Part shown: positions 8,985 through 22,991 of the stretch, one piece after another
How positions within the stretch are numbered: the stretch's first letter is position 1
How the letters are laid out: every line of letters starts with the position of its first letter
Assembly (NCBI RefSeq): GCF_014203645.1
Contig: NZ_JACHJL010000027.1
Location: 1 to 64,000, forward strand
DNA from: Streptomyces zagrosensis
GTDB taxonomy: Bacteria; Actinomycetota; Actinomycetes; Streptomycetales; Streptomycetaceae
DNA length: 64,000 nt
Direction: 5' to 3'
Program-made: the position numbers and the translations under genes
The notes under the pieces: model-generated
The model's input: the letters and a program-made list of their open reading frames with translations, nothing else
Told to the model about the DNA's origin: nothing
Databases searched by the model: none

Positions 8985-9093
8985 TGACCACGGCGGTACT
9001 CGTGCCATTCGGCTGAGGTCGTGTGGCGCGGAAGCCCCGTGACCGTCATGGCCTTGTCTCCGGATGGGGCATGACGCGTACGGGCTGTGCGGT

Positions 9094-9132
9094 GGGCCCT
9101 GTCGAGGTTGATCTTTAGCCTCGGCAGGGCCC
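9094..9132. terminator. Strong stem-loop terminator
   Basis: The 14-base arms at 9094-9107 and 9119-9132 pair perfectly apart from one G-U wobble, around an 11-base loop. The hairpin lies about 110 bases after the amidase-domain gene and before the Hsp20 promoter, so it insulates the two units. There is no T-tract, as usual in streptomycetes. Confidence 0.75.
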
Positions 9133-9183
9133 GCTGCGTGTGCGGCCTGCGATACGGACTCGCCGATTTTCCTGAGTCTCCTC

Positions 9184-9213
9184 TTGTCAACTTTATGGGT
9201 GGCGAGCTATATA
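9184..9213 (+). promoter_or_regulatory. HrdB/sigma70-like promoter of the hsp20 unit, with a possible degenerate HAIR element
   Basis: TTGTCA at 9184-9189 and TATATA at 9208-9213 are separated by 18 bases, close to the vegetative consensus and about 50 bases before the Hsp20 start. Overlapping the -35 box, CCTGAGT and TGTCAAC (9171-9191) are spaced seven bases apart like the HspR HAIR operator (CTTGAGT-N7-ACTCAAG). The right half matches only four of seven bases, so this is tentative. No RheA-type TGTCATC/GATGACA repeat was seen. Confidence 0.6.
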
Positions 9214-9263
9214 AGAAGGCGTAGGGCATCGCACGCAGTTCGAGATGAGAGGAGAGACCTGTG

Positions 9264-9689
9264 ATGCTCATGCGTACTGATGCGTTCCGTGATCTAGATC
9301 GAATCACCCAGCAACTCCTTGGCACCGCCGCGCACCCGGCCGTGATGCCAATGGACGCCTACCGAGTGGACGACGCATTCGTCGTGCACTTCGATGTGCC
9401 GGGCATCGACCCAGACACCATCGACCTCGACGTCGAGCGGAATGTGCTCACAGTCAAGGCCGAGCGTCGCTCACCGGCGCCTGACGGGGCGGAGATGATC
9501 GCCTCGGAGCGGCCTTCCGGAGTACACACTCGCCAGCTTCTGCTCGGCGACACGCTCGACGTTGAGCGCATTGATGCGTCGTATGACGCGGGGGTGCTCA
9601 CCTTGCGGATGCCGGTCTCTGAGAAGGCCAAGCCCCGCAAAATCAAGATCGGCGACGGAGGCGGGACCCCCCGCCAGATCGTGGCCTAA
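9264..9689 (+). CDS. Small heat-shock protein, Hsp20/alpha-crystallin family (Hsp18 type)
   Basis: ATP-independent chaperone of 141 residues that holds unfolding proteins as an oligomer. The alpha-crystallin domain runs from about residue 30 to 130: [19 protein letters not shown], then the conserved A-x-x-x-n-G-v-L signature as [13 protein letters not shown], then AKPRKIKI. It closely resembles the Streptomyces Hsp18 subgroup (MLMRTD start). The ATG at 9264 is chosen by that resemblance; a GTG directly precedes it, with GGAGAG upstream. A DUF2267 gene follows 79 bases downstream and a hairpin closes the unit, suggesting a heat- or stress-induced pair. Confidence 0.93.
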
Positions 9690-9768
9690 GCCGGGCTCCC
9701 CCTTCGACGAGAAAGGCAATCACACCACCATGCGCACTGAGCGGCGAGCTGAACAGCAGGAGAGGGGC

Positions 9769-10170
9769 ATGAGGTTCGACGAGCTGATCAAGGCAGTGCA
9801 GGAGGACGGCTGTTACGCCACGGCCGCGGAAGCCGATGAGGTGACGCGTACCGTGCTGGCAGCATTGGGCCGTCAGCTCGTCGGCGATGAGCGGGTGGTA
9901 TTGGCCCGTCTCCTGCCGGCGGAAGCGGCTCATGAGTTCGCCGCCCAGATCCCTGCTACGCGACGGCTCACCGGCGGCGAGTTCGTGGACGAGCTCGCCG
10001 CGCGCACCGGCCTCGATCCGGTGACCGCGCGCTGGAACGCCGGGTCCGTCCTCGGCGTCCTGGCCCGCACCGCAGGTCCTGACCTGGTGCGGAACATCCT
10101 CGCCCAGTTGCCCGAGGGATACGCGCTGCTGTTCGGCCAGGCCCAGTTGGCTCCGGCGCGCGCGGCCTGA
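9769..10170 (+). CDS. DUF2267 protein
   Basis: A 133-residue mostly helical protein matching DUF2267 (MRFDELIKAVQ, then LAALGRQLVGDER, FAAQIPA and FVDELAARTG). The family is widespread in actinobacteria, often next to stress genes; its biochemical role is not established. The ATG at 9769 has GGAGAGGGG directly upstream and begins at the family's usual position; an in-frame ATG at 9730 is less well placed. It probably shares the hsp20 promoter and is followed by a 16-base-arm hairpin. The C-terminus ends in an Ala-rich tail. Confidence 0.85.
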   Translation: MRFDELIKAVQEDGCYATAAEADEVTRTVLAALGRQLVGDERVVLARLLPAEAAHEFAAQIPATRRLTGGEFVDELAARTGLDPVTARWNAGSVLGVLARTAGPDLVRNILAQLPEGYALLFGQAQLAPARAA

Positions 10171-10194
10171 CCCGCTCCCCACGCCGAGAAACTG

Positions 10195-10228
10195 CCCAGG
10201 AGCGCGCGGGCGCCCGCGCACTCCTGGG
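10195..10228. terminator. Hairpin terminator after DUF2267 gene
   Basis: Arms 10195-10210 and 10213-10228 form a 16-base inverted repeat with a single C-A mismatch and almost no spacer, 25 bases after the DUF2267 stop. It closes the hsp20-DUF2267 unit. Confidence 0.7.
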
Positions 10229-10283
10229 CCCGCCCAAAGCGGCAAGGCACGGGGGCCTGGAGCTTCGCTGGCCTCGTAACTGG

Positions 10284-10724
10284 TTGCGGCCGGCCCCGCC
10301 TCTTGGCCTGCCCGACGCTGGCCCCGGGGTCAGCCCGTACTCCCCACCGACTGCCCGTGCGCTACCGAGTCCGCCGGGGCGACGGGCCCCCGGGCCCTGG
10401 CTCACCCCTGACAGCGCCACCCTCACCAGCTTCCGGCAGAAGCTCGACCTGCGGCAGGGCACCCTCACTCGGTGGCTGCGGCCTCAAAACTCGCGAAGAC
10501 GCGCTGTGGCTGAACCCGGCGCGGCGCCACTGCTGGAGCCATCCGAGTACGGCTTCTGCGCCCGCTTCCACGGCCACCGGGGCGTCTCGCTGCGCATGCG
10601 GTCGGGAAAGCTGTGCGTCAGCGTGCCCGATTTCAACGAGACTCCCATTCGGCTTGACCTCGCCGGCCGCTCGGTGACCATCGCGCCGGAAGACTCCTGC
10701 TGGCTCCACCTTCCCGGCAACTGA
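10284..10724 (+). pseudogene. Remnant of a GH65-like glycoside hydrolase/phosphorylase (N- and C-terminal scraps joined)
   Basis: The frame is open for 146 codons but only two short parts look like protein. LDLRQGTLTR (around 10435) resembles the early strand of GH65 enzymes (kojibiose/maltose phosphorylase family). The last 58 residues (FHGHRGVSLRMRSG, SVPDFNETPIRL, SVTIAPEDSCWLHLP) resemble their C-terminal beta-sandwich cap. The catalytic barrel between them, about 600 residues, is missing and no good start is present. I read it as an internally deleted gene; the resemblance is from memory of the family and is weak. The rest of 10229-10800 holds nothing recognised. Confidence 0.35.
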
Positions 10725-10800
10725 TCCGCCGCGCCTGGTCAACCACACCTGGGCGGGCCCCGACGAGCCCGGTGGCAGCCCCGCTGGCCGTACGGGGTCC

Positions 10801-12246
10801 TCACCGCTCCATGGACGCCGGGCCGGCCAGCAAGCGGGCCGTTATCGTCTTGGGTCGCTGGTACTCATGCAGCGCCAGGACGCTCAAATCCGTGCCATGG
10901 CCCGAGGCGCCCCTGCCGCTGTGCGGGAGCTCCGCCGTCTGAACGAGATGGCAGTTCAACCAGGCCTCGCCCGCGTTCAGTCGGCCCGCCACATCGAGCC
11001 CCGTGCCCACATCGCGCGTCCATACGCTCGCCGCCAACGCCTGCGGTACGCCGTTCGCCAGGTCGATGGCCGCGTCCAAGCCGGCCGCCCACTGGACGGT
11101 CAGCAGCGGCCCGAAGACCTCATCGACGACCGCGGGATCATCATCGGGCACATCCGCCAACACCCGGGCGGCGCGCCACACTCCGCCCTCCTCGCCCGAC
11201 CCCGGCGCGATCTCGGCCGCGATGTTCCGCCCGGCCCGGGAGGCCGCGACGATCCGGTCGTACCGCGCGGCCTGGTCGGCGTTGTTGAGCGGCCCGAAGT
11301 CCCGCCCGGCCAGCCGCTGGGCCATCGCGGCCGACAACCGCTCGACGGCGGTCTCATAGTTCTCGCGCAGCGTGATCACCCGGGCGGGCGCGGCACAGCT
11401 TTGCCCCGCGTTGTACGTACAGGCCCGCGCCAGCTCCGCCCAGGTGTCATCGGGCGCGTCGGGCAGCACGAGCGCGGGGGCGTTGCCGCCGAGCTCAAGG
11501 CTGGCTCGACGTATCCCGGCGCGGGCCACCACGTCGGCGCCGGCGGACTTGCTGCCGGTGAAGGCCACCATGTCGATGTCCGCCTCTACCAGCAGCCTGC
11601 CGGTCTTGCGGTCGCCGGGAAGCGTCTGTAGCACGGCATCGCCCAGCGCATCGGCGGCATGCTCGGCGAAGAGGGTGAGCGAGTCCGGGGTGGTCTCGGC
11701 GGGCTTGACCACCACCGTGTTACCGGCGGCCAACGCGGGCGCGCCACGCCACGCCGTCATCATCAGCGGATAGTTCCACGGCACGATCACCCCCACCACG
11801 CCCACCGGCTCCCAGCGAACCCAGCTCTCATGCCCGGCCACCAGGCGCCCCGATGCCGGAACCAGCTGCGTGCGGGCGGCCGAAGCGTAAAACCGGAACA
11901 GATCGGCGACCTGCTCCACCTCGCCCACCGCCTCGGCCGCCGGCTTGCCCGTCCCGGCCTGCTCCCGAGCCACGTACTCGGCCGCGTGCTCCTCGACCAG
12001 CGTGGCGAGCCGCTCCAGGCGCCGCGATCGGTCCCTGGGAGTCCGCTCACGCCAGGCGTGCGCCGCTGTGCGCGCCGCGGCGACGGCCGCCGCGACCTCC
12101 TTCTTACGCGCCCCCTGCACCGTGCCGCGTACCCGCCCGGTGCGGGGATCGACCAGCGCAATGGAGCGCACAGTGGTCGCCGGGGTGCTGGTTTGCGCGG
12201 TGGTTTCTGGGCTGCTGGGCTGCGTAGCGGATATCGGGGTGTCCAT
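10801..12246 (-). CDS. NAD(P)-dependent aldehyde dehydrogenase (aminobutyraldehyde dehydrogenase-like)
   Basis: Full-length 481-residue aldehyde dehydrogenase oxidising an aldehyde to its acid. The catalytic Cys is in NAGQSCAAP and the general-base Glu in LELGGNAP; GVVGVIVPWNYPL and VVVKPAETTP are cofactor-site signatures, and FTGSKSAG is the Rossmann loop. The closest subgroup seems to be gamma-aminobutyraldehyde/betaine-aldehyde type. It is the last minus-strand gene of the block that begins with the cupin at 18688, 84 bases after the asparagine-synthetase-like gene. It may be co-transcribed with that set, but its role there is unknown. Confidence 0.9.
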   Translation of the reverse strand: MDTPISATQPSSPETTAQTSTPATTVRSIALVDPRTGRVRGTVQGARKKEVAAAVAAARTAAHAWRERTPRDRSRRLERLATLVEEHAAEYVAREQAGTGKPAAEAVGEVEQVADLFRFYASAARTQLVPASGRLVAGHESWVRWEPVGVVGVIVPWNYPLMMTAWRGAPALAAGNTVVVKPAETTPDSLTLFAEHAADALGDAVLQTLPGDRKTGRLLVEADIDMVAFTGSKSAGADVVARAGIRRASLELGGNAPALVLPDAPDDTWAELARACTYNAGQSCAAPARVITLRENYETAVERLSAAMAQRLAGRDFGPLNNADQAARYDRIVAASRAGRNIAAEIAPGSGEEGGVWRAARVLADVPDDDPAVVDEVFGPLLTVQWAAGLDAAIDLANGVPQALAASVWTRDVGTGLDVAGRLNAGEAWLNCHLVQTAELPHSGRGASGHGTDLSVLALHEYQRPKTITARLLAGPASMER

Positions 12247-12330
12247 GGGCTCAGGTCCTCCTGGTGCCGACTCGTATGGTGCACACGGCGCGGCCTACGG
12301 GCCGTTTTTGCCCGCTCGATCACGCCGCGC

Positions 12331-14100
12331 TCATAGCTCGTAGGACCGCAGCCACAGTTCGAGGGTGAGCACCAGCCACAGCTTGCTGCCGTGCCGAGGC
12401 TGTAGGGTGCCCTCGCCGCGCATCCAGGTACGCACCGTGTCGGGGCGGAACAGCCCGCGCTGCCGTGCGGACGCGCCCAGGAGCAGATCGCTGCCGAGCT
12501 CTCGCAGCGGCCCGTGCAGCCACTGCTGCACCGGCACCCGCATCCCGCTCTTGGGCCGGTCCACGACGGTGGCGGGCAGCAGGTCCCGCACGGCTTCCTT
12601 CAGCACCCACTTCTCTACGGTGCCGCGCAGCTTCAGCCCGGGCGGGGTGGCGAAGGCGTGGTCGATGACTCGGCGATCGAACAGGGGCGACCGCCCCTGT
12701 ATCCCCTGCGAGGCGGTCAGCCGCTCCACCTTGGTGAGGATGTGGTGCGCGCCCTTGGTGCGCAAATTGCAGTGCAGCAACTGGTTGAGTAGATACGTCA
12801 TCCGATCCGGCCCGGACAGATAGGGCTCGACGAACCGCTGCGGCACCGGTGCATCGGCCAGTGTCCGAAGGGCCTCGGCCGTCAGCAGGTCGGGCAGATC
12901 GGTCCAGCACTTGCGGTAGGAGCGCAAATAGGCGGTGGCACGGTCATCGCCGGGCCCGGCCGGGTCCTGGTGCATTTCGTGGACGAGCATCGGCAGGTTC
13001 TTCGGACCGCCGAACACCGGGTCCCCGCCCTCCCCGTTGAGGGCCACCCGCAGCCCTTCCCCCGCCACCGTCTCGGCCAGCAGCAAATTGGGCACCGTCA
13101 GCGGATCACCCACCGGATTGTCGATGAGCGCCGCCGCTTCGGGAAGCCGCGCGGCCACGGCATCGCCGGAGACGGTCAGCACCCGATGCCGCGTGTGGCA
13201 GTGCGCGGCGACCAGGCTTGAGTACCCCAGCTCATTGGGGAATTCATTGCCGAAGCTGATCGAGTACGTGCGCACCGGATGCGTGTGCAACTTGACGGCC
13301 AGGGCCGTCACCAGGGAACTGTCGATGCCGCCAGACAGCAGGACGCCAACGGCCTCGGCCTCAGGCAGCCGCCGAGCGGTGGCCGCTTCCAGCGCGGCGC
13401 GCAGGTCCAGCACGGTGTCCGTAGGGTCTCGTTGCTCCGGGTCCGCAAGGTGTTCGCGTGGCTCCCAGTGCACCTGTTCGGTGACCGTGCCGTCCGCCGC
13501 GAGCCGCAGCACTCGCCCGGGCAGCACCTCGCGCACGCCGCGTAGCAGCGTCTCCTCGCCGGGCAGATAGGCGAAGGTCAAGAAGGAGCGGACGGCGGCC
13601 ATGTTCAGCCCAGCGCCCAAAGCGGGCCAGCGCCGCAACGCTCGCAACGACGACGAGGCGGCCCAGCAGCCGTCTGCGCGAGCGTAGAAAAGGGTGCGGG
13701 CGCCCACGTGGTCACGGATCAGCACCAGGTCCGAGCCGTCCAGGACGGCGAGCGTAAACATGCCCTCCGCCAGGGCGACGCCGCCCTCGCCCAGCCGTGC
13801 CCAGCAGCGCAACAGCAGTTCACCATCGGCACAGTCGGGCGGCGGGTTCTCGCCTACGGCGGCGAGCGCGGCGAACAACTCCGCGCGGTTGTGCACGGTG
13901 ACCTCGCCGATGGCCGTCAGCCCGCGGACGACGAAGGGGCCGTCGGCGTGACCGGGTTCGTCCATGAGCAGGGCGACACCCGGCGTCGCTGTGCCGGGTG
14001 TCGCTGTGCCGCGCGCTGTGCGCTCGGTGGCGCCCATCGCGGCGAGGTGGTCGCGAGCCCGTCCGGGGGAGGGCGCCAGACAGGCGCAATAACGCGCCAT
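12331..14100 (-). CDS. Asparagine-synthetase-like amide ligase with a degenerate glutaminase domain
   Basis: A 589-residue AsnB homologue. The C-terminal ATP-pyrophosphatase half is intact: P-loop VLLSGGIDSSLVTALA, then NGEGGDPVFGG and SPLFDRRVIDHAF. The N-terminal half has the Ntn-glutaminase shape, but residue 2 is Ala (start MARYCAC), not the Cys nucleophile required after Met removal, so glutamine cannot be the ammonia source in the usual way. Such enzymes include beta-lactam synthetase and lasso-peptide or macrolactam cyclases, which form an internal or intermolecular amide from a different amine. The start at 14100 has AAAGGAG seven bases upstream. It follows the coupled operon of the TOPRIM-like proteins by 176 bases. 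Confidence 0.85.
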   Translation of the reverse strand: MARYCACLAPSPGRARDHLAAMGATERTARGTATPGTATPGVALLMDEPGHADGPFVVRGLTAIGEVTVHNRAELFAALAAVGENPPPDCADGELLLRCWARLGEGGVALAEGMFTLAVLDGSDLVLIRDHVGARTLFYARADGCWAASSSLRALRRWPALGAGLNMAAVRSFLTFAYLPGEETLLRGVREVLPGRVLRLAADGTVTEQVHWEPREHLADPEQRDPTDTVLDLRAALEAATARRLPEAEAVGVLLSGGIDSSLVTALAVKLHTHPVRTYSISFGNEFPNELGYSSLVAAHCHTRHRVLTVSGDAVAARLPEAAALIDNPVGDPLTVPNLLLAETVAGEGLRVALNGEGGDPVFGGPKNLPMLVHEMHQDPAGPGDDRATAYLRSYRKCWTDLPDLLTAEALRTLADAPVPQRFVEPYLSGPDRMTYLLNQLLHCNLRTKGAHHILTKVERLTASQGIQGRSPLFDRRVIDHAFATPPGLKLRGTVEKWVLKEAVRDLLPATVVDRPKSGMRVPVQQWLHGPLRELGSDLLLGASARQRGLFRPDTVRTWMRGEGTLQPRHGSKLWLVLTLELWLRSYEL

Positions 14101-14276
14101 GGACGGCTCCTTTTCTTGAGTCTTTCCGTGTTCTGTGTGTCGTTCCCTGCACCCGTGGGCAGGTCGCCGGAGGTAGGCGCCGGGTGCTGGTTGCGCTTGC
14201 TGGGCTGGTTGTGCACGGCTGGTGGCGCCCGTAGTTTCCATGCCATCGGATCGGTCCGACCAGCTGCTATCGAGGC

Positions 14277-14816
14277 TCAGCCGAAGTCGTCGTTGCTCCA
14301 ACCGCCGTCGTCCTCGCCCCAGTTACCCTCCCAGCTCTCTTCCTCAGCCCCGCTCAGATCACCGCCGGGGTCGCCCCCGCCGTCACCGCCTGCGGACCCC
14401 TGCGCCTGCGCGGCCTGCTGCTGGCGCAGCGCTTCCTCCTCCGCGGGCGTCAGGTGCAGCGGCGGGAGTTGGGCGGCGGTGATGGCCAGGCTCACCACGC
14501 CGAGTGTGGCGAGCACGGCGCCCGTCCGGCCGCCGAACGACGTCCGGTTGATCATGACCGTCTCGCCCCGTGCCCACAGCGTCCGGCCGTACCCGATGTC
14601 GCGGCCGTACGTCACTGTTCCATCGGTCTGTACGCGCTTGACGATGCGCTGTCCCAGGAGCTCGTCGGTGCCCACCGCGCCCCGGTTGTCGTGCCAGTGC
14701 ACGACGCCACCGTCCCCGCGGCGGCGCCACTCCTGGCAACCGTCCTCGTAAGCGCGATGGACGCTGCCGTCGGCGAGCAACTCGTCGGTATAACCGATCT
14801 CATGTGGCCGGGTCAT
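14277..14816 (-). CDS. Small single-span membrane protein with an acidic Trp/Gly/Asp tail (unknown function)
   Basis: A 179-residue protein I do not recognise. Residues 1-95 carry two similar beta-hairpin-like repeats (TDELLADGSVHRAYEDG and TDELLGQRIVKRVQTDG), followed by WHDNRG- and GRTLWARG-type strands. One hydrophobic helix follows (about 110-128, LATLGVVSLAITAAQ). The tail is Gln/Ala then Gly/Asp-rich and ends ESWEGNWGEDDGGWSNDDFG. The ATG at 14816 overlaps the stop of the upstream paralogue (ATGA). The repeat half and tail lie on opposite sides of the membrane by topology. The acidic tail next to a ligase-like enzyme might be its substrate, but that is only a guess. Confidence 0.7.
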   Translation of the reverse strand: MTRPHEIGYTDELLADGSVHRAYEDGCQEWRRRGDGGVVHWHDNRGAVGTDELLGQRIVKRVQTDGTVTYGRDIGYGRTLWARGETVMINRTSFGGRTGAVLATLGVVSLAITAAQLPPLHLTPAEEEALRQQQAAQAQGSAGGDGGGDPGGDLSGAEEESWEGNWGEDDGGWSNDDFG

Positions 14817-15826
14817 TTTCTGCGGTCCTTGGTATGGGCGGTCGGTAGGCGAGAAGTGCTGAGGGTGGTAGGAAGCGCCGGAGCGCGTTGCGCGGTCGGC
14901 CACGTCAAAAAGCCAGTGCTCCGCAGCTCGCGCAGATCGGTCCATACGGAGGGCCGCAACGGGCGAGGGCCGCGCGTGAGCCGCTGCACCGTGCGCAGCA
15001 GTTGTTCTGGTGGTACGGCAGCGACCTGGGTGAACCGCCCCTGTGCCAGCCACGCGACCTCCTGCGGGCGTAGCCCCTTGGGCAGAGGCTCGCGCAGCGG
15101 CACCGGGCCGGGCGCACGCCCGGACGCCAGATGCAGGGATGCCGCATGCCGGGGCACCAGACCCAGCGAGGCCACGCGCACCCCCGGCACCGGCCCGAAT
15201 CCGTCTCGGATGCGGCCGGGCAGGGCGAGGCCGGTGGGGCTCGCGTCGTGCAGGACGTACACGGTCGCGCCCTGTGCCCGCTCCAGGCCGGCCACCAGAC
15301 GGGCGTCCAGCGGTTGGCCGTCCTCGGCGGCCAGGATCGGGCAGGCCGCCTCCAGGTGCACATGGTTGGCCAACAGCATCCGTGCGATGGAACGGTCCTG
15401 ACAGATCAGTAGCCGGGGCAGCCCGTAGTCGTACACATCGGGTTCCCGGGCCGGGCCCACCGCGGGACTGGTCCCCTCGGCAACGAACTCGCGCAGCAAC
15501 CCGGGCACCTCCCCGCCGCGGGCCTCAAGCGCGCGGGTGAAATGGGCCAGCCGCAGCGAAGGGGCAGGGGAGCGCGGGATACGGCGCAGCACGTTGGGCA
15601 CCGGCCGCAGGACGCGGCAGGTGGCGTAGTAGAGCTGGCGCTCGGTGAAGCGGATGCCGCCGGGCGCGGCGGCCCGGGCGGCGGCCACGGTGATGGCCCA
15701 GTCGAGCAGGTGGGCCGCGGGCCCGCCGACCCGTCGCCCGCGGTGCGGCCCCGGGCTGGCTTGTGGGGCCTGTGGGACTTGCGGGACCTGTCGGGCATGT
15801 GGGGCCGGAGGGGGTTGCGCGGTCAT
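14813..15826 (-). CDS. TOPRIM-like soluble protein, third paralogue of the operon (unknown function)
   Basis: A 337-residue protein without zinc ribbon or membrane spans. After a Pro/Gln-rich lead come a helix-turn-helix-like stretch (RFTERQLYYATCRVL), a core LLICQDRSIARMLLANHV and VYVLHDASPTGLALPGRI, and a C-terminal STGFLTWPTAQ. The RQLYY segment, the Q/D at the first motif and D-x-x-x-x-G at the second resemble Spo11/TopoVI-A/JetD winged-helix plus TOPRIM modules, though the canonical Glu is Asp/Gln here, so metal chemistry is uncertain. Core motifs and the GFLTWP end are shared with the two genes upstream. The start overlaps the previous stop (TGATG) and its stop overlaps the next start. 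Confidence 0.65.
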   Translation of the reverse strand: MTAQPPPAPHARQVPQVPQAPQASPGPHRGRRVGGPAAHLLDWAITVAAARAAAPGGIRFTERQLYYATCRVLRPVPNVLRRIPRSPAPSLRLAHFTRALEARGGEVPGLLREFVAEGTSPAVGPAREPDVYDYGLPRLLICQDRSIARMLLANHVHLEAACPILAAEDGQPLDARLVAGLERAQGATVYVLHDASPTGLALPGRIRDGFGPVPGVRVASLGLVPRHAASLHLASGRAPGPVPLREPLPKGLRPQEVAWLAQGRFTQVAAVPPEQLLRTVQRLTRGPRPLRPSVWTDLRELRSTGFLTWPTAQRAPALPTTLSTSRLPTAHTKDRRK

Positions 15827-16917
15827 CAGGTGGTTCTGCCTTCCTCGAAAGCGGAACTGGTGGCCTGCGGCCAGGTCAAGAAGCCGATCGCGGCAGCACG
15901 TCGGTGCTGCGGGTCGGCCGCGATCCGGCCCCGCTCCACCGCTTGTTCCACGGCCCGTATGACAACGGACTCCAGCCGGGCGGGAGGCACCGCCGCCAGC
16001 GGGCTCCACCACCCATCGGCCAGCCAGTCGGCGAGCGCCGCAGGTAGCCCGGCAGCCGTGCGTAGCCGCTCCGAACTGATGCGGGACGGTAGGTTCAACA
16101 GCCGTACCGTGTGGGTGGCGTGCGCGACACCCACCGAAAAACCGGCGTCCACGATCACCCGCCCCGGCAGGGCCTCGCGTATGTCCGAAGCCAGCAGGGC
16201 GCCCTCAGCGCTCGCGTCGTGCAGCACGACCACCGGCACCTTCCTGGGCAGCTCACCGAGGCCTTCGACCACGGCCAGCCGCAACCGCTGAGGAAGGCCG
16301 TTGGCGGCGAGGAAGACCCTGACGGCCTGGTCGGGGCACAGCAGTGCGGCATTCGGTTTGGCCACCGGCAGGGCCGAGTCGGTGAACGCCCTCTCGTCCA
16401 CGATCCCGGTAGGCAACTCGCCGTACACCTGCTTCCAGGGACCGCACATCAGCTCCCGGAAGCGTACGTACGAGGAGGAGAGGGACACCTTGCCACGGCT
16501 CGCCGGACGGTACTTGCCGCCCGCGGCCCAGCCCAGGAGCAATAGGCACGCCACGCCGGTCGCGTACGCCACCGGTTTGCCTGACACGGGAGTGCTGACG
16601 GCGGCCACGACAGCGGCCACGGTGAGCGCGGCGGCCAGCGAACCGGTGATTAGCCACCGGGTTCGCGGCGGCGTGCCCTTGGCGTCGGAAGGGCCCCAAT
16701 ACAGGCTGTCGGTCAGGGTGAGGTACCACAACTGGCCGAGCGTCACCCGCACTCGGCCGTCCTGCGTCACCTGCTGGACACGGCGGCGTATCCGCAGGTC
16801 GTGCATGCCCCTACCGTGCTCCCTCGGGTCCAGGGCGAACCGCTTGCGGCAGCGGGAACACACACTGCCGGTCCGCTCCTTGCGCAGCAGCTGCGCCTGG
16901 CAGTGCGGGCACGTCAT
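15826..16917 (-). CDS. Zinc-ribbon, membrane-anchored TOPRIM-like protein, second paralogue (unknown function)
   Basis: A 363-residue protein in four parts: an N-terminal zinc ribbon (CPHC and CSRC), a conserved helical patch (DLRIRRRVQQVTQDGRV then LGQLWYLTL), two hydrophobic spans (ITGSLAAALTVAAVVAAV and ATGVACLLLLGWAAG), and a cytoplasmic core with ALLCPDQAVRVFLAANGL and VVVLHDASAEGALLASDI. It ends AAIGFLTWPQ. The core shares order and spacing with the two neighbouring paralogues. The start at 16917 begins exactly at the zinc ribbon and overlaps the upstream stop (ATGA). Family unknown to me; the domain order is seen directly and the TOPRIM likeness is inferred. Confidence 0.68.
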   Translation of the reverse strand: MTCPHCQAQLLRKERTGSVCSRCRKRFALDPREHGRGMHDLRIRRRVQQVTQDGRVRVTLGQLWYLTLTDSLYWGPSDAKGTPPRTRWLITGSLAAALTVAAVVAAVSTPVSGKPVAYATGVACLLLLGWAAGGKYRPASRGKVSLSSSYVRFRELMCGPWKQVYGELPTGIVDERAFTDSALPVAKPNAALLCPDQAVRVFLAANGLPQRLRLAVVEGLGELPRKVPVVVLHDASAEGALLASDIREALPGRVIVDAGFSVGVAHATHTVRLLNLPSRISSERLRTAAGLPAALADWLADGWWSPLAAVPPARLESVVIRAVEQAVERGRIAADPQHRRAAAIGFLTWPQATSSAFEEGRTT

Positions 16918-17927
16918 CGTTCCCCCGTGGTGGGCCAGGTCAAAAAGCCCACGGCCGCGGCGTGCCGCCGCTGTGGGTCGGTGGCCATACCCACGCGCTC
17001 GGCGATCCGCTCCACCACGGCAAGCAGCCGGGCCGGTGGTGCCCCGATGAGGGGGAACGTCCAGCCCGCGCGCAGCCATCTGAGCTCGCCGCGGGTGAAG
17101 TGGCCCCGTGCGGTGAGTTCGGCCATGGCGGCCCGGCCCGGTTTGCCGCTCCGGTAGGGCACGGCGTTCGGCAGCCCCCGCATGGTGCGCAGCGGCAGCC
17201 CCGCGTCGATCACGGGCCGACCCGGCAGGGCGCCACGGGCACGCTGGAGGAGCAGCAGACCGTGCGCCCCGGCGTCGTGCAGCACGATGACGGGGCCGCG
17301 GGCGGGGACGTCGTGCACCTCACGGGCGAGGGCGAGGCCGTAGCGGTCGGGCAGTCCGGCGGCGACGAGGAAGGCGGCGATGGACGGGTCCGGACACAGC
17401 AGCACTGCATGGTGGCTGCCGGCGGGGATCGGCCCCGGCTGCGGATGACGCCGATCGTCCACCAGACCCGGCGGGGGGCTGCCGTATACGCCGATCCACT
17501 GCTGGAGTACGTCTTTGTGGAAGTCCGAGCGGGCCACTCTCGGCCGGCCCCTGCGCAGACCACCCGCCAGCATGCCCAGGTACGTGATGGCGCCGAGCAA
17601 GACCACGCAGCCAGCGATGACAACGAACCTGGTGTCACTGAACAGTCCGACGATAGTCGCCACCACGGCGACGAACAGCGCCACGCAACCGGATTCGGTT
17701 CTTTTCGACCGCAGCGACTTGCGCGATAGCGCGTACCACAACTGCCCGGGCGTGCACGGGACCCGCCCCTCGTCGGTCAGCTTGGTCATGACCCGGCGTA
17801 TGCGCAGGTCGCTGATCTGCAAGGGATTGGTCTTGGGGTCAAGCGCGTACCGCCGCTTGCAGTTGCTACAGACGTTGTTGGGCCGCTCTTTGCGTAACAG
17901 CGACTTCTCGCAGTGCGGGCAGATCAC
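16914..17927 (-). CDS. Zinc-ribbon, membrane-anchored TOPRIM-like protein, first paralogue (unknown function)
   Basis: A 337-residue protein with the same plan as its downstream neighbour: zinc ribbon (CPHC, CSNC), DLRIRRVMTKLTDEGRV and PGQLWYALSRKSL, two spans (VALFVAVVATIVGLF and FVVIAGCVVLLGAITYLGML), then AVLLCPDPSIAAFLVAAGL, VIVLHDAGAHGLLLLQRA and a C-terminal AAVGFLTWPTT. The zinc ribbon could bind nucleic acid or protein; the core looks like a sensory or enzymatic TOPRIM/Rossmann-type module facing the cytoplasm. GTG start at 17927 overlaps the cupin stop (GTGA). It clearly arose by duplication with the next gene. Confidence 0.68.
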   Translation of the reverse strand: MICPHCEKSLLRKERPNNVCSNCKRRYALDPKTNPLQISDLRIRRVMTKLTDEGRVPCTPGQLWYALSRKSLRSKRTESGCVALFVAVVATIVGLFSDTRFVVIAGCVVLLGAITYLGMLAGGLRRGRPRVARSDFHKDVLQQWIGVYGSPPPGLVDDRRHPQPGPIPAGSHHAVLLCPDPSIAAFLVAAGLPDRYGLALAREVHDVPARGPVIVLHDAGAHGLLLLQRARGALPGRPVIDAGLPLRTMRGLPNAVPYRSGKPGRAAMAELTARGHFTRGELRWLRAGWTFPLIGAPPARLLAVVERIAERVGMATDPQRRHAAAVGFLTWPTTGER

Positions 17928-18688
17928 CGGGGTGCCTCCAGCGCGCTGGCCACCCGGCGCAACCTGGTGGCCAATCGTTCCCGCATGGTGGTGGTGCCCG
18001 TGCCCCGCAGCCGCTGGACGTTCTCGATGTCGCGCAGGGCCGCGGCGAGCGCGTAGAAGTCAGTGCCGGAGCGGGTGATGGTGCTCAGCGGCCCATCACC
18101 GGCGGCGGGCGTGGCGGTCGAACGGCGCTCCGCCTCCTGCGCGGTGATCGCGTAGTCCTCGTGGTCGATGCCGTAACCGGTGTTGGCGGCCAAGATGGTC
18201 AGTGGCGCGGTGCCCCGGTTGGAAAACGAATGGGGCATCATCTCCGGGATACGGATCATCACCCCTGGTACCAGGGGCACTTGGCTGACTTCGGATCGTT
18301 CCGCGTCGTAGAGGCCACACGCGGCGTGGCCGAGGCTGAGCACGAAGTGCTCACCGCCGTGAGCGTGTGGTGTGAAGGCGCTGCGCGGGCCGACGACACC
18401 GAGCTTGACGGTGGCGTTGGACGGTCGCTCGGGTGAGGTGCCGGCGTCCCCGACGAGGTAGTGGGCGAACTGGCCGTCGTCGATGAAGCGGAGGAAGTCC
18501 CGCTCTGGGCCGAGCTCTCGGGCGCCGCCCCGGTCGGCAAAGGCGATGCCGCCATCGGGCCTCAGCGCGTACAACTCCACGCCGTCCGGCAGCCGTGCGG
18601 CCAGCTTCCTCAGATGCCGAAGCCCTTCCGAGGCGTAGGCCTTTGGTACGCCGTCACGTGGCGCCCCGTCATGCGATATACCGGACAT
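17924..18688 (-). CDS. Cupin-domain protein, first gene of the TOPRIM-like operon
   Basis: A 254-residue protein. The central double-stranded beta-helix carries a plausible metal site: PHAHGGEHFVLSLG (His, His, Glu) in motif 1 and IPEMMPHSFSNRG (His) in motif 2. A helical C-terminus (ALAAALRDIENVQ) follows. Cupins of this type bind a small ligand or metal and may be enzymes or sensors; nothing fixes which. The ATG at 18688 follows a GGGGGG ribosome site and lies just downstream of the perfect inverted repeat at 18712. The stop overlaps the GTG of the next gene, so it is the head of a five-gene coupled chain. Confidence 0.8.
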   Translation of the reverse strand: MSGISHDGAPRDGVPKAYASEGLRHLRKLAARLPDGVELYALRPDGGIAFADRGGARELGPERDFLRFIDDGQFAHYLVGDAGTSPERPSNATVKLGVVGPRSAFTPHAHGGEHFVLSLGHAACGLYDAERSEVSQVPLVPGVMIRIPEMMPHSFSNRGTAPLTILAANTGYGIDHEDYAITAQEAERRSTATPAAGDGPLSTITRSGTDFYALAAALRDIENVQRLRGTGTTTMRERLATRLRRVASALEAPR

Positions 18689-18711
18689 CAAGCCCCCCAG
18701 GTGTCCTCTGT

Positions 18712-18725
18712 ATGCGCAAGCGCAT
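18712..18725. promoter_or_regulatory. Perfect inverted repeat (ATGCGC-AA-GCGCAT), candidate operator of the cupin operon
   Basis: Six-base arms separated by AA, 24 bases upstream of the cupin start codon and thus near the expected transcription start. The position fits a repressor site controlling the whole coupled operon. The regulator is unknown and no regulator gene lies next to it. Confidence 0.4.
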
Positions 18726-19347
18726 CGTAAGCCGCTGATCCACACTGCGGGAGCGTACGGACCGATTCGTTGGCCAACTGATGCGCCGACGTACGGTGAA
18801 CGGCGAGGCAGGTACGCCATCACACCCAGCCGGAACGCCCCGCTCCACGCCCCGCTCCACGCCGCGCATGCCGTCCATTGCCTGCTCGTCGCTGCCTGGC
18901 GTTGGTCGTATGGGGGGCCATGACGTGTTTGTGCAACGCCTGTTGTCGGTTGTACGGGGCGGCGTCGCGGCCCAGGGCACTGGGACGACCGGCCGACGAC
19001 GCGAGGCCGCTCGGCCCGGCCCAGCGGGGGCATATCCCGGGCTCTCACGACGGACGCCGGGCCGGAGATTTACGCGGCCATGGAAGGCCGATGATCGCTC
19101 AAAGTTACCATTGCTCAGCTCATTGTCAGTGGCGCGTGGTCTGATGGTGGAACGACACAGGGAGGCACCCGCCGGCCGGGCGGGGGTGGCTGTGCTGTGT
19201 CGGAGCGCAGGGCAAGCAGTAGCGACAGGGAACGGGGTGGCGAAGGTGCGAGGTGTGGGGGCGGCTGCGGCCTACGAGGGGTGTGAGGGCGGCAGGTTCG
19301 GCCCGGGCGGTCGGCCGGGCAGCAGGCCACTGACGAGGAGATGGGGC
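18726..19347. other. Non-coding stretch without recognised content
   Basis: About 620 bases between the divergent cupin operon and the small gene before the Mrr-type nuclease. Several frames are open because of high GC, but none has a ribosome site, a signal sequence or a recognisable motif. It presumably holds the promoters of both flanking units. A short repetitive run (CCGCTCCACGCC twice) lies near 18840. Confidence 0.5.
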
Positions 19348-19626
19348 GTGATCGTGGCCACCACAGACGAGATGCATGACGACGGCGGGCCTCAGCCAGC
19401 CGGACGGCTGGCTCCGATGAGCAGCGGGCAAACGGCCTTGGCACCTGGACCCGTCGTACGGTTTCCGGGAGCGCCCCCGCGGCGGCTGCGCAGGGCATCG
19501 CAGCCCGCGTCGCGAGACGGCTGCGAAGGGCGCGAACGGGGTGGGGGCGAACGGAGTAGGAGGCAGCGTGCCCGGCAACTGCGGTTCGCCGCAGCCGTCG
19601 CGGCCGGGCAGGAGGGCATCCGATGA
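19348..19626 (+). CDS. Small hypothetical protein overlapping the nuclease gene
   Basis: GTG at 19348 with GAGGAG eight bases upstream opens a 92-codon frame. The predicted product has an acidic start (TTDEMHDDG) and a strongly basic Arg-rich end (ERSRRQRARQLRF). No family is recognised and no membrane span is present. Its TGA overlaps the ATG of the following endonuclease gene, suggesting translational coupling. It could be a leader frame rather than a functional protein; GC-rich DNA leaves long frames open by chance. Confidence 0.35.
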   Translation: MIVATTDEMHDDGGPQPAGRLAPMSSGQTALAPGPVVRFPGAPPRRLRRASQPASRDGCEGRERGGGERSRRQRARQLRFAAAVAAGQEGIR

Positions 19627-20396
19627 GCCCCCGGCCCGCCCGCCGGCCGGCGCGTCGCCCTCCGCACAGACCCGCGCGCCGTCCCGCACGTCGCCCCGCA
19701 CGCCGTCTCGCACGTCGTCCCGCACGTCGGGGCGCCGCCCGTGGACGGCGTCAGAGTAGATCGTCAGAGCGGCGAAATCAGCGACTGCTGGGCGCCGTTG
19801 TCGCGATCGTCGTGGTAGTCGGTCTCGTCCAATGGCTTGTCGCGCACTGGTGGGTGTTGATCGTCCTCGTCGTTTTGGCAGCAGTGGCCGGGGTGGCCTG
19901 GCAGCAGCGGTCTCAGCAGCGAGCCCAGTGGGAGCAGGCGCGCGCCGGCGCGTTGCGATGGGGACTGGCGGAGATCGACGCGCTGCATCACAGCGAGTTC
20001 GAATTTGCGGTCCGTGACCTGATGCGCCGGGACGGCTGTAGGGCGGAGCGCATTGGAGGCGCCGGAGACGACGCCTGCGACGTCAAGGCAGTGGACCCGG
20101 CGGGTCGCGTTTGGGCGATCCAGTGCAAACATCGCAGGGACGGGGATCGCGGTTCGTCGGTCGGCGTTGGCGTGCTCCAGCAGGTCAACGGCACCGCCCG
20201 GCAAGTCCATGGCGCCGATGTCGCGGTCGTCCTGACCAACGGCCGGTTCTCCGCACCGGCCGTCCCCTGGGGCAAGACCCACCGCATCCACCTCATAGAC
20301 CGTCGCCTGCTCGGCACCTGGGCCGCCGGCTCCCGCCCCCTGTGGGAGCTCATAGACAACGTGCCGCCCCCGCGACGTCCCGCCGGCCCGCCGTGA
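19623..20396 (+). CDS. Membrane-anchored Mrr-type restriction endonuclease
   Basis: A 257-residue protein. The first about 50 residues are tandem RPARR-type Arg/Pro repeats, two adjacent membrane spans follow (LLGAVVAIVVVVGLVQWLV, then LIVLVVLAAVAGVAW), and the C-terminal half is a PD-(D/E)xK nuclease of the Mrr_cat family. In that half FEFAVRDLMRRDGC is the leading helix, DDACDVKAV gives the Asp, and WAIQCKH gives the Q-x-K of the Mrr variant. Such anchored Mrr proteins are thought to cut modified or incoming DNA near the membrane; the target here is unknown. The Arg repeats come from short tandem DNA repeats. No methyltransferase partner for restriction-modification is adjacent. Confidence 0.85.
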   Translation: MSPRPARRPARRPPHRPARRPARRPARRLARRPARRGAARGRRQSRSSERRNQRLLGAVVAIVVVVGLVQWLVAHWWVLIVLVVLAAVAGVAWQQRSQQRAQWEQARAGALRWGLAEIDALHHSEFEFAVRDLMRRDGCRAERIGGAGDDACDVKAVDPAGRVWAIQCKHRRDGDRGSSVGVGVLQQVNGTARQVHGADVAVVLTNGRFSAPAVPWGKTHRIHLIDRRLLGTWAAGSRPLWELIDNVPPPRRPAGPP

Positions 20397-20510
20397 CCTG
20401 CCTCGGGGCGAATGTGCACATGCGCTTTCGCCCGCGGGTACACCGCGGTTGGCGTCACCGGACCGTTCGCCACGATCAAGACCGGACCACCGAAACAGGG
20501 AGGGTAGGAC

Positions 20511-21323
20511 ATGACGCAGGACCGCCCCACACCATTCCCACTGGATACTTCGACGGCACACCCGGCGCGGGTGTACGACTACATCCTGGGCGGCAAGACC
20601 AACTATCCGGCGGACCAAGACGCTGGCCGGGCGATGTGTGGCGGCTGGCCTTCGCTCCCGATCTCGATGTGGCAGAACCGAGACTTCATGGGGCGTGCGG
20701 TCGCCTATCTCGCGCGCGAGCACGGCATCCGCCAGTATCTCGACATCGGCACGGGCATCCCTACCCCACCCAATCTGCACGAGATCGCCCAGGGTGTCGC
20801 GCCGGACAGCCGAGTTGTCTACGTCGATAACGACCCCATCGTGCTGACCCATGCGCAAGCCCTGCTGGACAGCACCCGGCAGGGGCGCACCAGCTTCCTA
20901 CGGGCCGACCTCCGCAATCCGGACAGCATCATCTCGTCCCCCGAGGTTCGCGACACCCTGGACCTGTCTCAGCCAACGGTCCTGAGCGTCATCGCCGTCG
21001 TTCACTTCCTTACGGACGCCGACGATCCGTACGGCATCGTGCGGCGGCTGATGGATGCGCTGCCCAGCGGGAGTTTTCTCGCCTTGACCACTGCCACGGC
21101 CGACTCGGCTCCGCGGGAAATGACCGCCGTGGCCCGGGAGTACACCCGGCGCAACATGACGCTGCGGCTACGCTCGCACGAGCAGTCGCGTGCGTTCTTC
21201 ACCGGCCTTGATCTGGTGGAACCTGGCGTGGTCCTGGTGCATCACTGGCACCCCGGGCCCGGTCAGGTCGATGTCCCCGACCACGATGTTGCGATGTATG
21301 GCGGCGTGGCGCGTAAGGCATAG
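20511..21323 (+). CDS. SAM-dependent methyltransferase, Methyltransf_19 (DUF574) family
   Basis: A 270-residue protein of the family abundant in streptomycetes. The signature N-terminus is HPARVYDYILGGKTNYPAD, followed by RQYLDIGTGIPT as motif I, VVYVDNDPIVLTHAQ as the acidic ribose contact, and LSVIAVVHFLTD. Members are probably small-molecule methyltransferases of secondary metabolism, but few have been characterised. ATG at 20511 preceded by GGGAGGG. It follows the nuclease gene by 114 bases without overlap, so it may have its own promoter. Confidence 0.92.
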   Translation: MTQDRPTPFPLDTSTAHPARVYDYILGGKTNYPADQDAGRAMCGGWPSLPISMWQNRDFMGRAVAYLAREHGIRQYLDIGTGIPTPPNLHEIAQGVAPDSRVVYVDNDPIVLTHAQALLDSTRQGRTSFLRADLRNPDSIISSPEVRDTLDLSQPTVLSVIAVVHFLTDADDPYGIVRRLMDALPSGSFLALTTATADSAPREMTAVAREYTRRNMTLRLRSHEQSRAFFTGLDLVEPGVVLVHHWHPGPGQVDVPDHDVAMYGGVARKA

Positions 21324-21719: not shown

Positions 21720-22991
21720 CTAGCGGGCGGCTGCCTGCGGCGGTTGGTTGTTGTCGATGTCGCCCTTGATCTGGTCGTACACCAGTGAGATGCGCGTTCC
21801 CCAGTTGGGGCAGCCGCCGAGGTGGTGCAGGGCGATGACCTTGTGCGAGGAGGCGGCCAGTACGGGCGAACCCGAGTTGCCGCCCGAGGTGTCGCACCGA
21901 TAGCCGGTGTTGACTCCGGACGACACGGTGTCGATCTTGCAGGTGGCACCGCCCTGGGACTCCTCGTAGACAGACAGCCGCTTGGGCTTGGTGTCACCGT
22001 GGCCCGGTATGTAGATGCGCTCGCCCGCCTTGGGGGTACGCGGCTCCAGATAGAGCGTCCCGAACTGCTGTATCTTCTCGAAGCTGTTGACGCTGAAGAG
22101 CGCGTAGTCGAGGGCGTTGAGCCCGCTCAGCTTGAGCAGCTGCTGACCGCTGACCTTGGTGCCGGGGCGCGGGTTGTTGCCGCCGCAGGTCGCGCACTGG
22201 TAGTCGAACTGGAACTCGCTGGAGCGCAGGTCCGCCTCGCTCTCCATGCAGTGCTGGTTGGTGAGCATCCGGTTGGTATTGCCTACCCGCCAGGCGGTGC
22301 AGTGGCCTGTGCCCCTGAGCAGTTGCCGCGCTACCGCATTGCCGCGGGCGTACTCGACCGGGTGGCTGGTCTGGTAGCAAGCGACGTCCCTTCGCGCGTC
22401 GCTGCCGCATACGCTCTTGGGTGACGGGGCGCGCACGGCCCGCTCGGTGGCGTCGAGACCACGGAAGTAGGTGTCGATCTCCACGCCGTAGCCGCGGCGG
22501 GCGAGCCGATCGGCGTCCCGGGCCCCTGTCGCGTGCAGGGTCACGACCGCGGTGTCGCCGTCGATCGACAGGGCGGCGAAGCCGGCGTCACCGTGTTCGG
22601 TGTAGTCAGAGCCGCGGCTGCGGTCGGCGTAATAGGTGTGCACCTCGCGTCGGTCCGGGGAGGCCACGGTCACCCGGTCGTTGCCGACGAGCTTGAGCGC
22701 GGCGAAGTGCACCTTCACGTAGGACGAACCGGGCGAGCGGATCTCCTGGCTCCAGGACCGCCCAGCGCTGCCGTATCGCAAGGCCACATCGGCCGTCCGC
22801 TCGGTACCGGCGGCGGCTACCGAAGGTGCTGAAGAGGGTGCTGTCGAGCGGGTGGACGAGGACGCCGCCGGCGCGGTGTCGTGCCGTGCCGCCGAGGCGT
22901 GCGGGGACGCAGGGCCGAAGCTGACGGCCACAAGACCGGTTGCCGCGACCATGAGGCCGACGACACGGCCCCAACGTCTGGTGGATACCAT
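21720..22991 (-). CDS. Secreted trypsin-like serine endopeptidase (S1 fold)
   Basis: Exported protein of 423 residues. A signal peptide (GRVVGLMVAATGLVAVSFG) and a Ser/Ala/Thr-rich linker precede a beta-rich propeptide-like domain (about 60-200, ending near AVRAPSPKSVCG) and a trypsin-like catalytic domain. The triad is visible: His in MLTNQHCMES, Asp in NALDYALFSV, Ser in TSGGNSGSPVL. Cys pairs around ATCGGN and GATCKI suggest disulfides. The start at 22991 has AAGGAG six bases upstream; the frame extends far beyond it through low-complexity DNA that is not protein-like. It lies divergent from the membrane gene at 23315 across a repeat-rich gap. Confidence 0.9.
   Translation of the reverse strand: MVSTRRWGRVVGLMVAATGLVAVSFGPASPHASAARHDTAPAASSSTRSTAPSSAPSVAAAGTERTADVALRYGSAGRSWSQEIRSPGSSYVKVHFAALKLVGNDRVTVASPDRREVHTYYADRSRGSDYTEHGDAGFAALSIDGDTAVVTLHATGARDADRLARRGYGVEIDTYFRGLDATERAVRAPSPKSVCGSDARRDVACYQTSHPVEYARGNAVARQLLRGTGHCTAWRVGNTNRMLTNQHCMESEADLRSSEFQFDYQCATCGGNNPRPGTKVSGQQLLKLSGLNALDYALFSVNSFEKIQQFGTLYLEPRTPKAGERIYIPGHGDTKPKRLSVYEESQGGATCKIDTVSSGVNTGYRCDTSGGNSGSPVLAASSHKVIALHHLGGCPNWGTRISLVYDQIKGDIDNNQPPQAAAR

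What the first reader, a model, noticed from the sequence alone, without database searches (positions are those of the whole stretch)
12331..18688. Unrecognised coupled operon: cupin, three TOPRIM-like paralogues, repeat/tail membrane protein, ligase-like AsnB homologue
Five genes in a row (17924, 16914, 15826, 14813, 14277) overlap by stop/start dinucleotides (GTGA, ATGA, TGATG, ATGA), then an AsnB homologue without Cys nucleophile follows. I know no described system with this set. Strict coupling implies fixed stoichiometry, so it is likely one machine at the membrane. The aldehyde dehydrogenase may be its last member.
Basis: partly seen in the sequence, partly recalled or inferred. Interest (0 to 1): 0.78.

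Follow-up and report, generated by a model that had tools for sequence, protein, structure and literature searches.

The report
Membrane TOPRIM and amide-ligase operon
A conserved, unnamed set of bacterial genes pairs an altered asparagine-synthetase-type ligase with membrane proteins built like the DNA-cutting enzyme topoisomerase VI but with a damaged cutting site, and with a small membrane protein that always ends in the same three amino acids; what the set makes or modifies is unknown.

Summary
The minus-strand operon cupin, g2, g3, g4, g5, AsnB, ALDH (18688-10801) recurs in many Streptomyces. A core of one zinc-ribbon TOPRIM protein, g4, g5 and AsnB recurs in Nocardia and other actinobacteria; a TOPRIM/AsnB pair sits on a cyanobacterial plasmid. 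Among 293 genomes of the order, this AsnB occurs in 17 and g5 in the same 17 plus one marginal hit. g2-g5 match no named family above a cut-off. The g4 model fits topoisomerase VI subunit A best (Z 11.3) and keeps its Arg-x3-Tyr motif, but the TOPRIM metal-binding acids are mostly gone; g2 and g3 add a zinc ribbon and hydrophobic segments. AsnB keeps its ATP motifs but has no Cys at position 2 and lacks the Glu-Tyr pair of five compared relatives. g5 has a beta domain, one membrane helix, a variable tail and an invariant C-terminal Asp-Phe-Gly (31 of 31). Best reading: a membrane-assembled ATP-dependent amide-ligase system on a repurposed topoisomerase-VI-like scaffold. Substrate and product are not established.

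The parts
17924..18688 (-). cupin (type I), 254 aa, HxH...H metal motif
   Evidence: Pfam Cupin_2 E 3e-4, below its cut-off; H108, H110, H114, H153 invariant in 8 of 8 aligned
16914..17927 (-). g2: zinc ribbon + QLWY motif + hydrophobic segment(s) + TOPRIM-like domain, 337 aa, GTG start
   Evidence: no family above cut-off; paralogue of g3/g4; hydrophobic segment 102-120
15826..16917 (-). g3: second zinc-ribbon/membrane/TOPRIM-like paralogue, 363 aa
   Evidence: hydrophobic segments 89-107 and 116-134
14813..15826 (-). g4: topoisomerase-VI-A-like paralogue without zinc ribbon or membrane segment (TERQLYY + TOPRIM), 337 aa
   Evidence: model pLDDT 69.4; VIA-align best chain 1d3y, Z 11.3, rmsd 3.8, 160 aligned; motif counts
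15626..15640 (-). g4 R63-Q-L-Y-Y67, same spacing as R102/Y106 of M. mazei Top6A
   Evidence: Y67 30 of 30, R63 29 of 30; Top6A residues from passages of PMC13040014
15239..15247 (-). g4 D194-A-S196, position of the TOPRIM DxD pair (second Asp lost)
   Evidence: D194 30 of 30; the S196 position is D in 1 of 30
14277..14816 (-). g5: beta domain, one membrane helix, Gly/Asp-rich tail, 179 aa
   Evidence: model pLDDT 62.6, strands within 5-91, helix 99-116; hydrophobic segment 99-117
14277..14291 (-). g5 C-terminal Asp-Asp-Phe-Gly plus stop
   Evidence: last three residues DFG in 31 of 31 loci
12331..14100 (-). AsnB-like ligase without Cys at position 2, 589 aa
   Evidence: PF00733 E 7.9e-75; motifs
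10801..12246 (-). aldehyde dehydrogenase, 481 aa (type I operons only)
   Evidence: PF00171 E 1.4e-109; closest solved chain 9ju5_A E 1.6e-183

Best explanation
A dedicated amide-ligase system assembled at the membrane. Inferred working: the cupin (a metal enzyme) and, in type I operons, the aldehyde dehydrogenase prepare a carboxylic acid. The AsnB-like enzyme activates a carboxylate with ATP as acyl-AMP and joins it to an amine that probably does not come from its own glutaminase site. g2/g3 (zinc ribbon plus membrane segments) and g4 are relatives of topoisomerase VI subunit A/Spo11 whose metal site has decayed, so they most likely act as a hetero-oligomeric membrane platform rather than as DNA cutters. 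g5 is the membrane partner whose beta domain sits in the complex and whose invariant C-terminal Asp-Phe-Gly is a recognition handle, read by the complex or by a partner outside it. Shown: the operon, its conservation, the motifs, the fold of a predicted model. Inferred: complex formation, loss of DNA cleavage, the reaction, the role of the tail. Substrate unknown.
For: Co-occurrence: AsnB in 17 of 293 genomes and g5 in the same 17. The 13 loci L073-L085, fetched by their AsnB alone, all hold g4 and g5 beside it; conserved order over 32 loci. Distance matrices of AsnB, g4, g5 and g2 correlate at 0.92-0.96 over 26 loci, 0 of 2000 label permutations reaching this. AsnB keeps SGG[IV]DSS, GEGGDPVFGGPKN and RPKSGM in 30 of 30 full-length copies. 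TOPRIM Glu position is Q 23, E 6, R 1 in 30 g4, and mostly P or T (E in 2 of 47) in g2/g3; second Asp lost in 29 of 30 g4. Hydrophobic segments in g2, g3 and g5. Cupin>g2>g3 overlaps conserved.
Against: No substrate, product or interaction shown. Mirror-tree agreement also follows from joint inheritance of linked genes. L077 has the core without cupin or ALDH, so these are accessory. Charge around the g5 helix suggests the tail is outside the cell, away from a cytosolic ligase. The number of membrane segments in g2 is not firm: the window copy shows one clear segment before the TOPRIM part, others two. A Cys at position 5 of AsnB is kept in most copies, so a glutaminase site exposed by trimming is not excluded. 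The Tyr of g4 is invariant, which a pure scaffold does not need. Foldseek itself gave no match with E <= 0.001 and profile comparison with JetD was not significant.
Confidence: 0.4

Rival explanations
1. The tail of g5 is itself the substrate: AsnB activates the C-terminal glycine carboxylate (or a nearby Asp) of g5 and amidates it or conjugates it to an amine, as in peptide tailoring or protein tagging. This is a sharper version of the best explanation.
For: DFG at the C-terminus in 31 of 31 while the tail before it varies in length and sequence. The nearest named AsnB model is N-acetylglutaminylglutamine amidotransferase, 259.6 bits against a cut-off of 570.1. AsnB-like enzymes that amidate or nitrilate peptide C-termini exist: PesC, TsrC, ScdTA (preprint PMC13060819: abstract, passages and sections 9 and 10).
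Against: The Glu-Tyr dyad that the same preprint finds in all five compared enzymes is Pro361 and Pro366 here. Predicted topology puts the tail outside. No protease or exporter family was found among the operon proteins.
Confidence: 0.17
2. A small-molecule biosynthetic cluster: ALDH, cupin and AsnB make a diffusible amide; g2-g5 serve export, sensing or self-protection.
For: Patchy spread (10 of 150 genomes of the genus, the window's own included); ALDH and AsnB adjacent in 21 of 32 loci; on the Gloeothece plasmid the neighbours are a PLP decarboxylase and a second AsnB-like protein.
Against: The minimal locus L077 has no cupin or ALDH; in the first 13 loci no gene beside the operon is shared by three or more except in the three Nocardia and the second cupin (flanks of about 5-9 kb); g4 and g5 accompany AsnB in 31 of 31 loci.
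Confidence: 0.25
3. A DNA-acting or defence system: g2-g4 still cut or nick DNA at the membrane with the conserved Tyr, and AsnB makes a small signal or modifies a partner.
For: Fold neighbours are Top6A, Spo11, JetD and the C. glutamicum nuclease 8b7f; R-x3-Y kept; in type I loci g2 (36-56% identity to the window copy) and g3 (41-56%) vary more than cupin (58-82%), AsnB (67-81%) and ALDH (67-79%).
Against: Metal-binding Glu and second Asp lost in most copies; no PADLOC hit but QueC at E 0.074 on AsnB; no relative of g4 in 50,697 phage records at E <= 0.01; no GHKL or other ATPase subunit among the operon proteins.
Confidence: 0.12

Closest known systems
Topoisomerase VI subunit A / Spo11 (and the JetD/MksG nucleases)
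   Same: TOPRIM fold with the best model match (1d3y Z 11.3; 9o0g 10.8; 8b7f 10.2; 7til 9.8); R-x3-Y motif with the R102/Y106 spacing of Top6A; Glu-position to first Asp distance 51 against 52
   Different: metal Glu and second Asp mostly lost; Tyr-to-Glu-position distance 76 against 96; two of three paralogues have zinc ribbons and hydrophobic segments; no GHKL subunit in the operon; no hit to the Pfam Top6A/Spo11 TOPRIM model in the genome
Asparagine-synthetase-like ligases (AsnO, PesC, TsrC, ScdTA, beta-lactam synthetase)
   Same: PF00733 synthetase domain with intact ATP loop; closest solved chains are beta-lactam synthetase 1jgt by single sequence (E 7.9e-23) and hydroxyamidotransferase 7ylz by profile (E 2.1e-40)
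   Different: no Cys at position 2; Glu-Tyr dyad replaced by two prolines; different genes beside it
Lasso-peptide cyclase
   Same: AsnB-like ligase without a working glutaminase (recalled for lasso cyclases)
   Different: NF033535 112.1 bits against cut-off 525; no leader peptidase or recognition gene recognised in the operon

Membership tests
Topoisomerase VI A / Spo11 | TOPRIM domain of Top6A type | tested here: met
   Z 11.3, rmsd 3.8, 160 aligned, the six best rows all Top6A or JetD-type nucleases; a predicted model, so fold level only
Topoisomerase VI A / Spo11 | winged-helix Tyr with the preceding clasp Arg (R-x3-Y) | tested here: inconclusive
   motif present: g4 R63 29 of 30, Y67 30 of 30; g2/g3 Tyr 43 of 47, Arg not among the six commonest residues. 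Equivalence rests on spacing; the winged helix itself was not matched by the fold search
Topoisomerase VI A / Spo11 | TOPRIM Glu and DxD metal site | tested here: not met
   Glu position Q/E/R 23/6/1 and second Asp 1 of 30 in g4; equivalence of the positions is by motif and spacing. The fourth acid of Top6A (E342) was not examined
Topoisomerase VI A / Spo11 | sequence match to the family model | tested here: not met
   PF21180 absent from the window's genome, rings in 4 of 14 controls
Wadjet JetD/MksG | sequence-profile similarity to JetD | tested here: not met
   hhalign probability 0.2-0.3% for three profiles against nine JetD_C-family ORFs; two of the three best local pairings do put VLHDAS on the JetD GDLD motif
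Glutamine-dependent asparagine synthetase | Cys nucleophile at the mature N-terminus | tested here: inconclusive
   no Cys at position 2 in 28 of 28 copies whose start was read; Cys at position 5 in 24 of 28 (Ser L027 and L080, Val L041, Thr L084) and aligned with Cys17 of the Gloeothece protein. Propeptide trimming as in some amidotransferases (recalled) could expose it
AsnB-like peptide C-terminal amidases | Glu-Tyr dyad near the carboxylate | tested here: not met
   GEGGDPVFGGPKN in 30 of 30 full-length copies; one search aligns P361 with the Glu of DEVFGG in E. coli AsnB 1ct9, one of the five enzymes; the Tyr place (P366) follows from the published spacing of five
Lasso-peptide system | B protein (leader recognition/protease) | tested here: not met
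   no such family among the seven operon proteins
Known defence systems | match to a PADLOC model | tested here: not met
   nine proteins; only QueC at E 0.074

The most novel reading that the evidence does not exclude
An unrecognised bacterial protein-conjugation system: an AsnB-type ligase activates the C-terminal glycine of a membrane-anchored protein and attaches it to an amine, working on a membrane platform made from topoisomerase-VI/Spo11-like proteins that have given up DNA cleavage.
Probability: 0.13. Interest if true: 0.92.

Novelty: categorically new. Interest (0 to 1): 0.68.

Why it matters
If the reading holds, the Top6A/Spo11 fold, so far known to me for cutting DNA, has a membrane-bound branch used for something else, and AsnB-type ligases have a new partner set. 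Four of the seven proteins match no named family above a cut-off, so the operon gives a direct way to study them: the tail motif and the conserved Tyr/Cys/His/Asp positions make testable predictions.

Tried and rejected
Chance or strain-specific gene order: rejected. Hidden peptide gene between g5 and AsnB (176 nt): reading frames inspected by eye show no convincing candidate, and the gap is only 8-9 nt in L017, L018, L019 and L042. RNA element: no Rfam family at gathering score in 9000-20500. Defence. Phage origin. Sequence route to solved structures: g4 profile best hit SATB2 at E 1.1, g2/g3 profile best hit leptin at E 0.0069, both taken as chance. Cupin profiles against solved structures: three weak hits at E 0.24 or worse, and none. 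g5 fold: best Z 6.8, a designed beta barrel, at a level the tool calls common; TCP10 domain 4bxr at Z 4.5 echoes the weak Pfam Tcp10_C hit at E 0.038. Foldseek with the g4 model against PDB and viral models: nothing at E <= 0.001. Resemblance of the g5 tail to SSB acidic tips was considered (recalled; search listing only) and left because the tail is predicted outside.

Literature: no listed title or abstract start describes this gene set. Four of these returned no paper at all, and searches list only part of their matches or merge copies; the library is open-access PMC only. PMC4431377 (ATP-grasp ligases predicted to tag proteins) was seen as abstract and outline only and not used. 9ju5, the closest solved ALDH, has no paper in the library.

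Rows dropped: L087 (G653, E 2.5e-4) showed no operon gene; G497 (g5 profile E 6.8e-4, with a stop inside); L016 is the same region as L020; L021 is the same region as plasmid NZ_CP108509.1. Partial contigs: L027, L040, L041, L043, L079, L086. For the motif counts, g4 pieces that start beyond query residue 60 or have 180 aa or fewer were left out (30 of 34 pieces used; 47 of 47 g2/g3 used). A second, 35%-identical ALDH in L084 was not counted. A genome count for g2/g3 failed twice.
Full report
Observation. On the minus strand the window holds cupin 18688-17924, g2 17927-16914, g3 16917-15826, g4 15826-14813, g5 14816-14277, AsnB 14100-12331 and ALDH 12246-10801. AsnB follows g5 after 176 nt and ALDH follows AsnB after 84 nt.

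Families. ALDH is an ordinary PF00171 member (E 1.4e-109). AsnB has a PF00733 synthetase domain (E 7.9e-75) and a weaker match to glutaminase-domain models (GATase_7, E 1.8e-10). The cupin is recognised only weakly (E 3e-4, under its cut-off). g2, g3, g4 and g5 match no Pfam, NCBIfam or PADLOC family above a cut-off. The nearest named model for AsnB is N-acetylglutaminylglutamine amidotransferase at 259.6 bits, far under its cut-off of 570.1.

Distribution. g4 is found in 10 of 150 genomes of the genus, 6 of 394 of the class, and the wider TOPRIM profile in 4 of 396 of the phylum, one of them a weak hit that I dropped. Each count includes the window's own genome, and the samples overlap. Named loci are Streptomyces buecherae, Nocardia aurea, N. 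bovistercoris and N. arizonensis and Streptomyces sp. NBC_01237. In 293 genomes of the order the AsnB of this clade (E <= 1e-120) occurs in 17 and g5 (E <= 0.001) in the same 17 plus one marginal hit, G497. A matching count for g2/g3 failed.

Gene order. I compared 32 loci including the window. They were chosen because they hold g4, g2/g3 or AsnB, so their content is not a free sample; the cleanest test is the 13 loci L073-L085, fetched by AsnB alone, all of which hold g4 and g5 beside it. In the 32, g4 is present in 32, g5 and AsnB in 31 each (L086 ends before them). The first cupin is in 19, all of which also have ALDH; ALDH is in 21 (the other two contigs, L027 and L041, are cut upstream). 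Six loci (three Nocardia, L028, L042, L085) have instead a different protein that I read as cupin-like from its HxHTG and later His motifs (no Pfam match), and no ALDH. L077 has only one zinc-ribbon TOPRIM protein, g4, g5 and AsnB, beside PEPCK and HlyIII genes: this is the minimal core. In the first 13 loci (window, L017-L028) no gene outside the operon is shared by three or more except neighbours common to the three Nocardia and the second cupin-like gene (flanks of about 5-9 kb, less where contigs end). Overlap of cupin>g2 (4 nt in 17 of 19 by script, 18 with the GTG start of L026 read) and g2>g3 (17 of 17) is conserved; g4>g5 overlap is not (2 of 31). Distances between the AsnB, g4, g5 and g2 copies of 26 loci correlate at 0.92-0.96, as expected of genes that travel together.

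A relative in another phylum. A plasmid of the cyanobacterium Gloeothece verrucosa PCC 7822 carries a 429-aa protein with zinc ribbon, hydrophobic segments and TOPRIM-like region (matches g4, E 1.7e-20, and g2, E 8.7e-11), directly behind an AsnB-like protein and a PLP decarboxylase, and beside a convergent AsnB that is 41% identical to ours with the motif GEGGDPCFGGPKN. No g5 relative was found among the eleven Gloeothece proteins compared. In the plasmid collection only this record and the Streptomyces record match the Gloeothece AsnB at E <= 1e-60, and both have the TOPRIM gene beside it.

g2, g3, g4. g4 was modelled from 12 sequences (mean pLDDT 69.4; 70 residues at 90 or above; several segments under 50, including 18-29, 77-88 and 288-327). 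Among the chains that Foldseek ranked, VIA-align puts topoisomerase VI A first (1d3y, Z 11.3, rmsd 3.8, 160 aligned; 9o0g 10.8), then the C. glutamicum nuclease 8b7f (10.2) and JetD 7til (9.8); plain TOPRIM proteins follow at about 9.4 and Spo11 at 8.0. The tool warns that models without relatives reach 7 to 8 and that rows under 1 apart are tied. Foldseek alone gave nothing at E <= 0.001. The N-terminal part was barely tested by these alignments. Sequence adds support: Top6A of M. mazei has catalytic Y106, clasp R102, and metal residues E202, D254, D256 (PMC13040014, passages). g4 has R63-x3-Y67 (29 of 30 and 30 of 30), then Q143 and D194/S196, with 51 residues between the Glu position and the first Asp against 52 in Top6A; the Tyr-to-Glu-position distance is 76 against 96. 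The Glu is kept in 6 of 30 and the second Asp in 1 of 30, while C142, H193 and D194 are kept in 30 of 30. In 47 g2/g3 copies the Tyr is kept in 43, Cys in 47, the Asp in 46, His in 41. Some g3 copies (L021, L039, L073 LHDADPLG; L025 LHDADPSG) still carry the full DxD. Profile comparison with JetD-family proteins gave no significant match and the Pfam Top6A/Spo11 TOPRIM model does not hit this genome. So: related by fold and motif, not a family member. MksG keeps the metal site and has no candidate Tyr in its 5Y-CAP-like domain (PMC10123090, passages); g4 is the reverse.

g5. Predicted strands between 5 and 91, a membrane helix at 99-116, a second helix, then a disordered tail (mean pLDDT 62.6). 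A hydrophobic segment is seen in 13 of 13 copies scored, with net positive charge before and negative after it, which suggests tail outside. The tail varies in length and sequence but ends in Asp-Phe-Gly in 31 of 31. Selection therefore appears to act on the very C-terminus.

AsnB. The ATP loop SGG[IV]DSS, GEGGDPVFGGPKN and RPKSGM are kept in 30 of 30 full-length copies. None of 28 copies whose start was read has Cys at position 2. A Cys at position 5 is kept in 24 of these 28 (Ser in L027 and L080, Val in L041, Thr in L084) and lines up with Cys17 of the Gloeothece protein, so trimming that exposes it is not excluded, though four copies could not use it. A recent preprint finds a Glu-Tyr dyad, five residues apart, in five AsnB-like enzymes and shows that it matters in the C-terminal nitrile synthetase PesC (PMC13060819, abstract, passages, sections 9 and 10). 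A profile of our AsnB aligned to E. coli AsnB 1ct9, one of the five, puts P361 on the Glu of DEVFGG; by spacing the Tyr place is P366. Both prolines are invariant in eight aligned copies including Gloeothece. The enzyme probably still adenylates a carboxylate but binds it differently.

Mechanism. The simplest account that covers all parts is a ligase system at the membrane: acid supplied or prepared by the cupin and ALDH where present, activation by AsnB, assembly on the TOPRIM-like proteins, and g5 as membrane partner with a C-terminal handle. Whether the tail is a docking site or the substrate cannot be told from sequence. The predicted outside location of the tail and the missing dyad speak against tail amidation; the invariant C-terminus and the precedents among AsnB-like enzymes speak for it.

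Verdict. A real, conserved and, in my literature searches (open-access library, listings only except the papers named), undescribed system. The components belong to known superfamilies, but the combination and the membrane-bound, metal-site-degenerate Top6A-like proteins fit no kind of system I know of. The mechanism is only partly supported.

Noticed in passing
37149-37242: ARAGORN calls a tRNA-Gly (gcc) of 94 nt, unusually long for tRNA-Gly; may contain an insertion or be an artefact.
   Followed up: no
19623-20396: Mrr-type restriction endonuclease domain (PF04471, E 8.7e-18) with an N-terminal hydrophobic stretch, divergent to the operon; not found beside it in the other loci compared.
   Followed up: partly
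20511-21323 and 21720-22994: PF04672 SAM methyltransferase and a protein read by eye as a secreted trypsin-like protease (no family search run); both also beside the operon in S. buecherae (L020) but not in the other loci.
   Followed up: partly
L044:8306-14336: Gloeothece plasmid locus with two AsnB-like proteins, a PLP decarboxylase and a zinc-ribbon/membrane/TOPRIM protein: a possible second subtype of the system.
   Followed up: partly
L017:14066-14812, L028:8458-9207, L085:13086-13811: A strongly conserved protein family with an HxHTG motif, no Pfam match for the two members scanned, that takes the place of the first cupin in type II operons.
   Followed up: partly
10801-12246: The ALDH is very close to an ALDH of known structure, 9ju5 (E 1.6e-183), whose biological context I could not find.
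   Followed up: partly
L039:5667-6990: The ALDH of this locus matches in two pieces in different frames, which suggests a frameshift or a sequence error.
   Followed up: no
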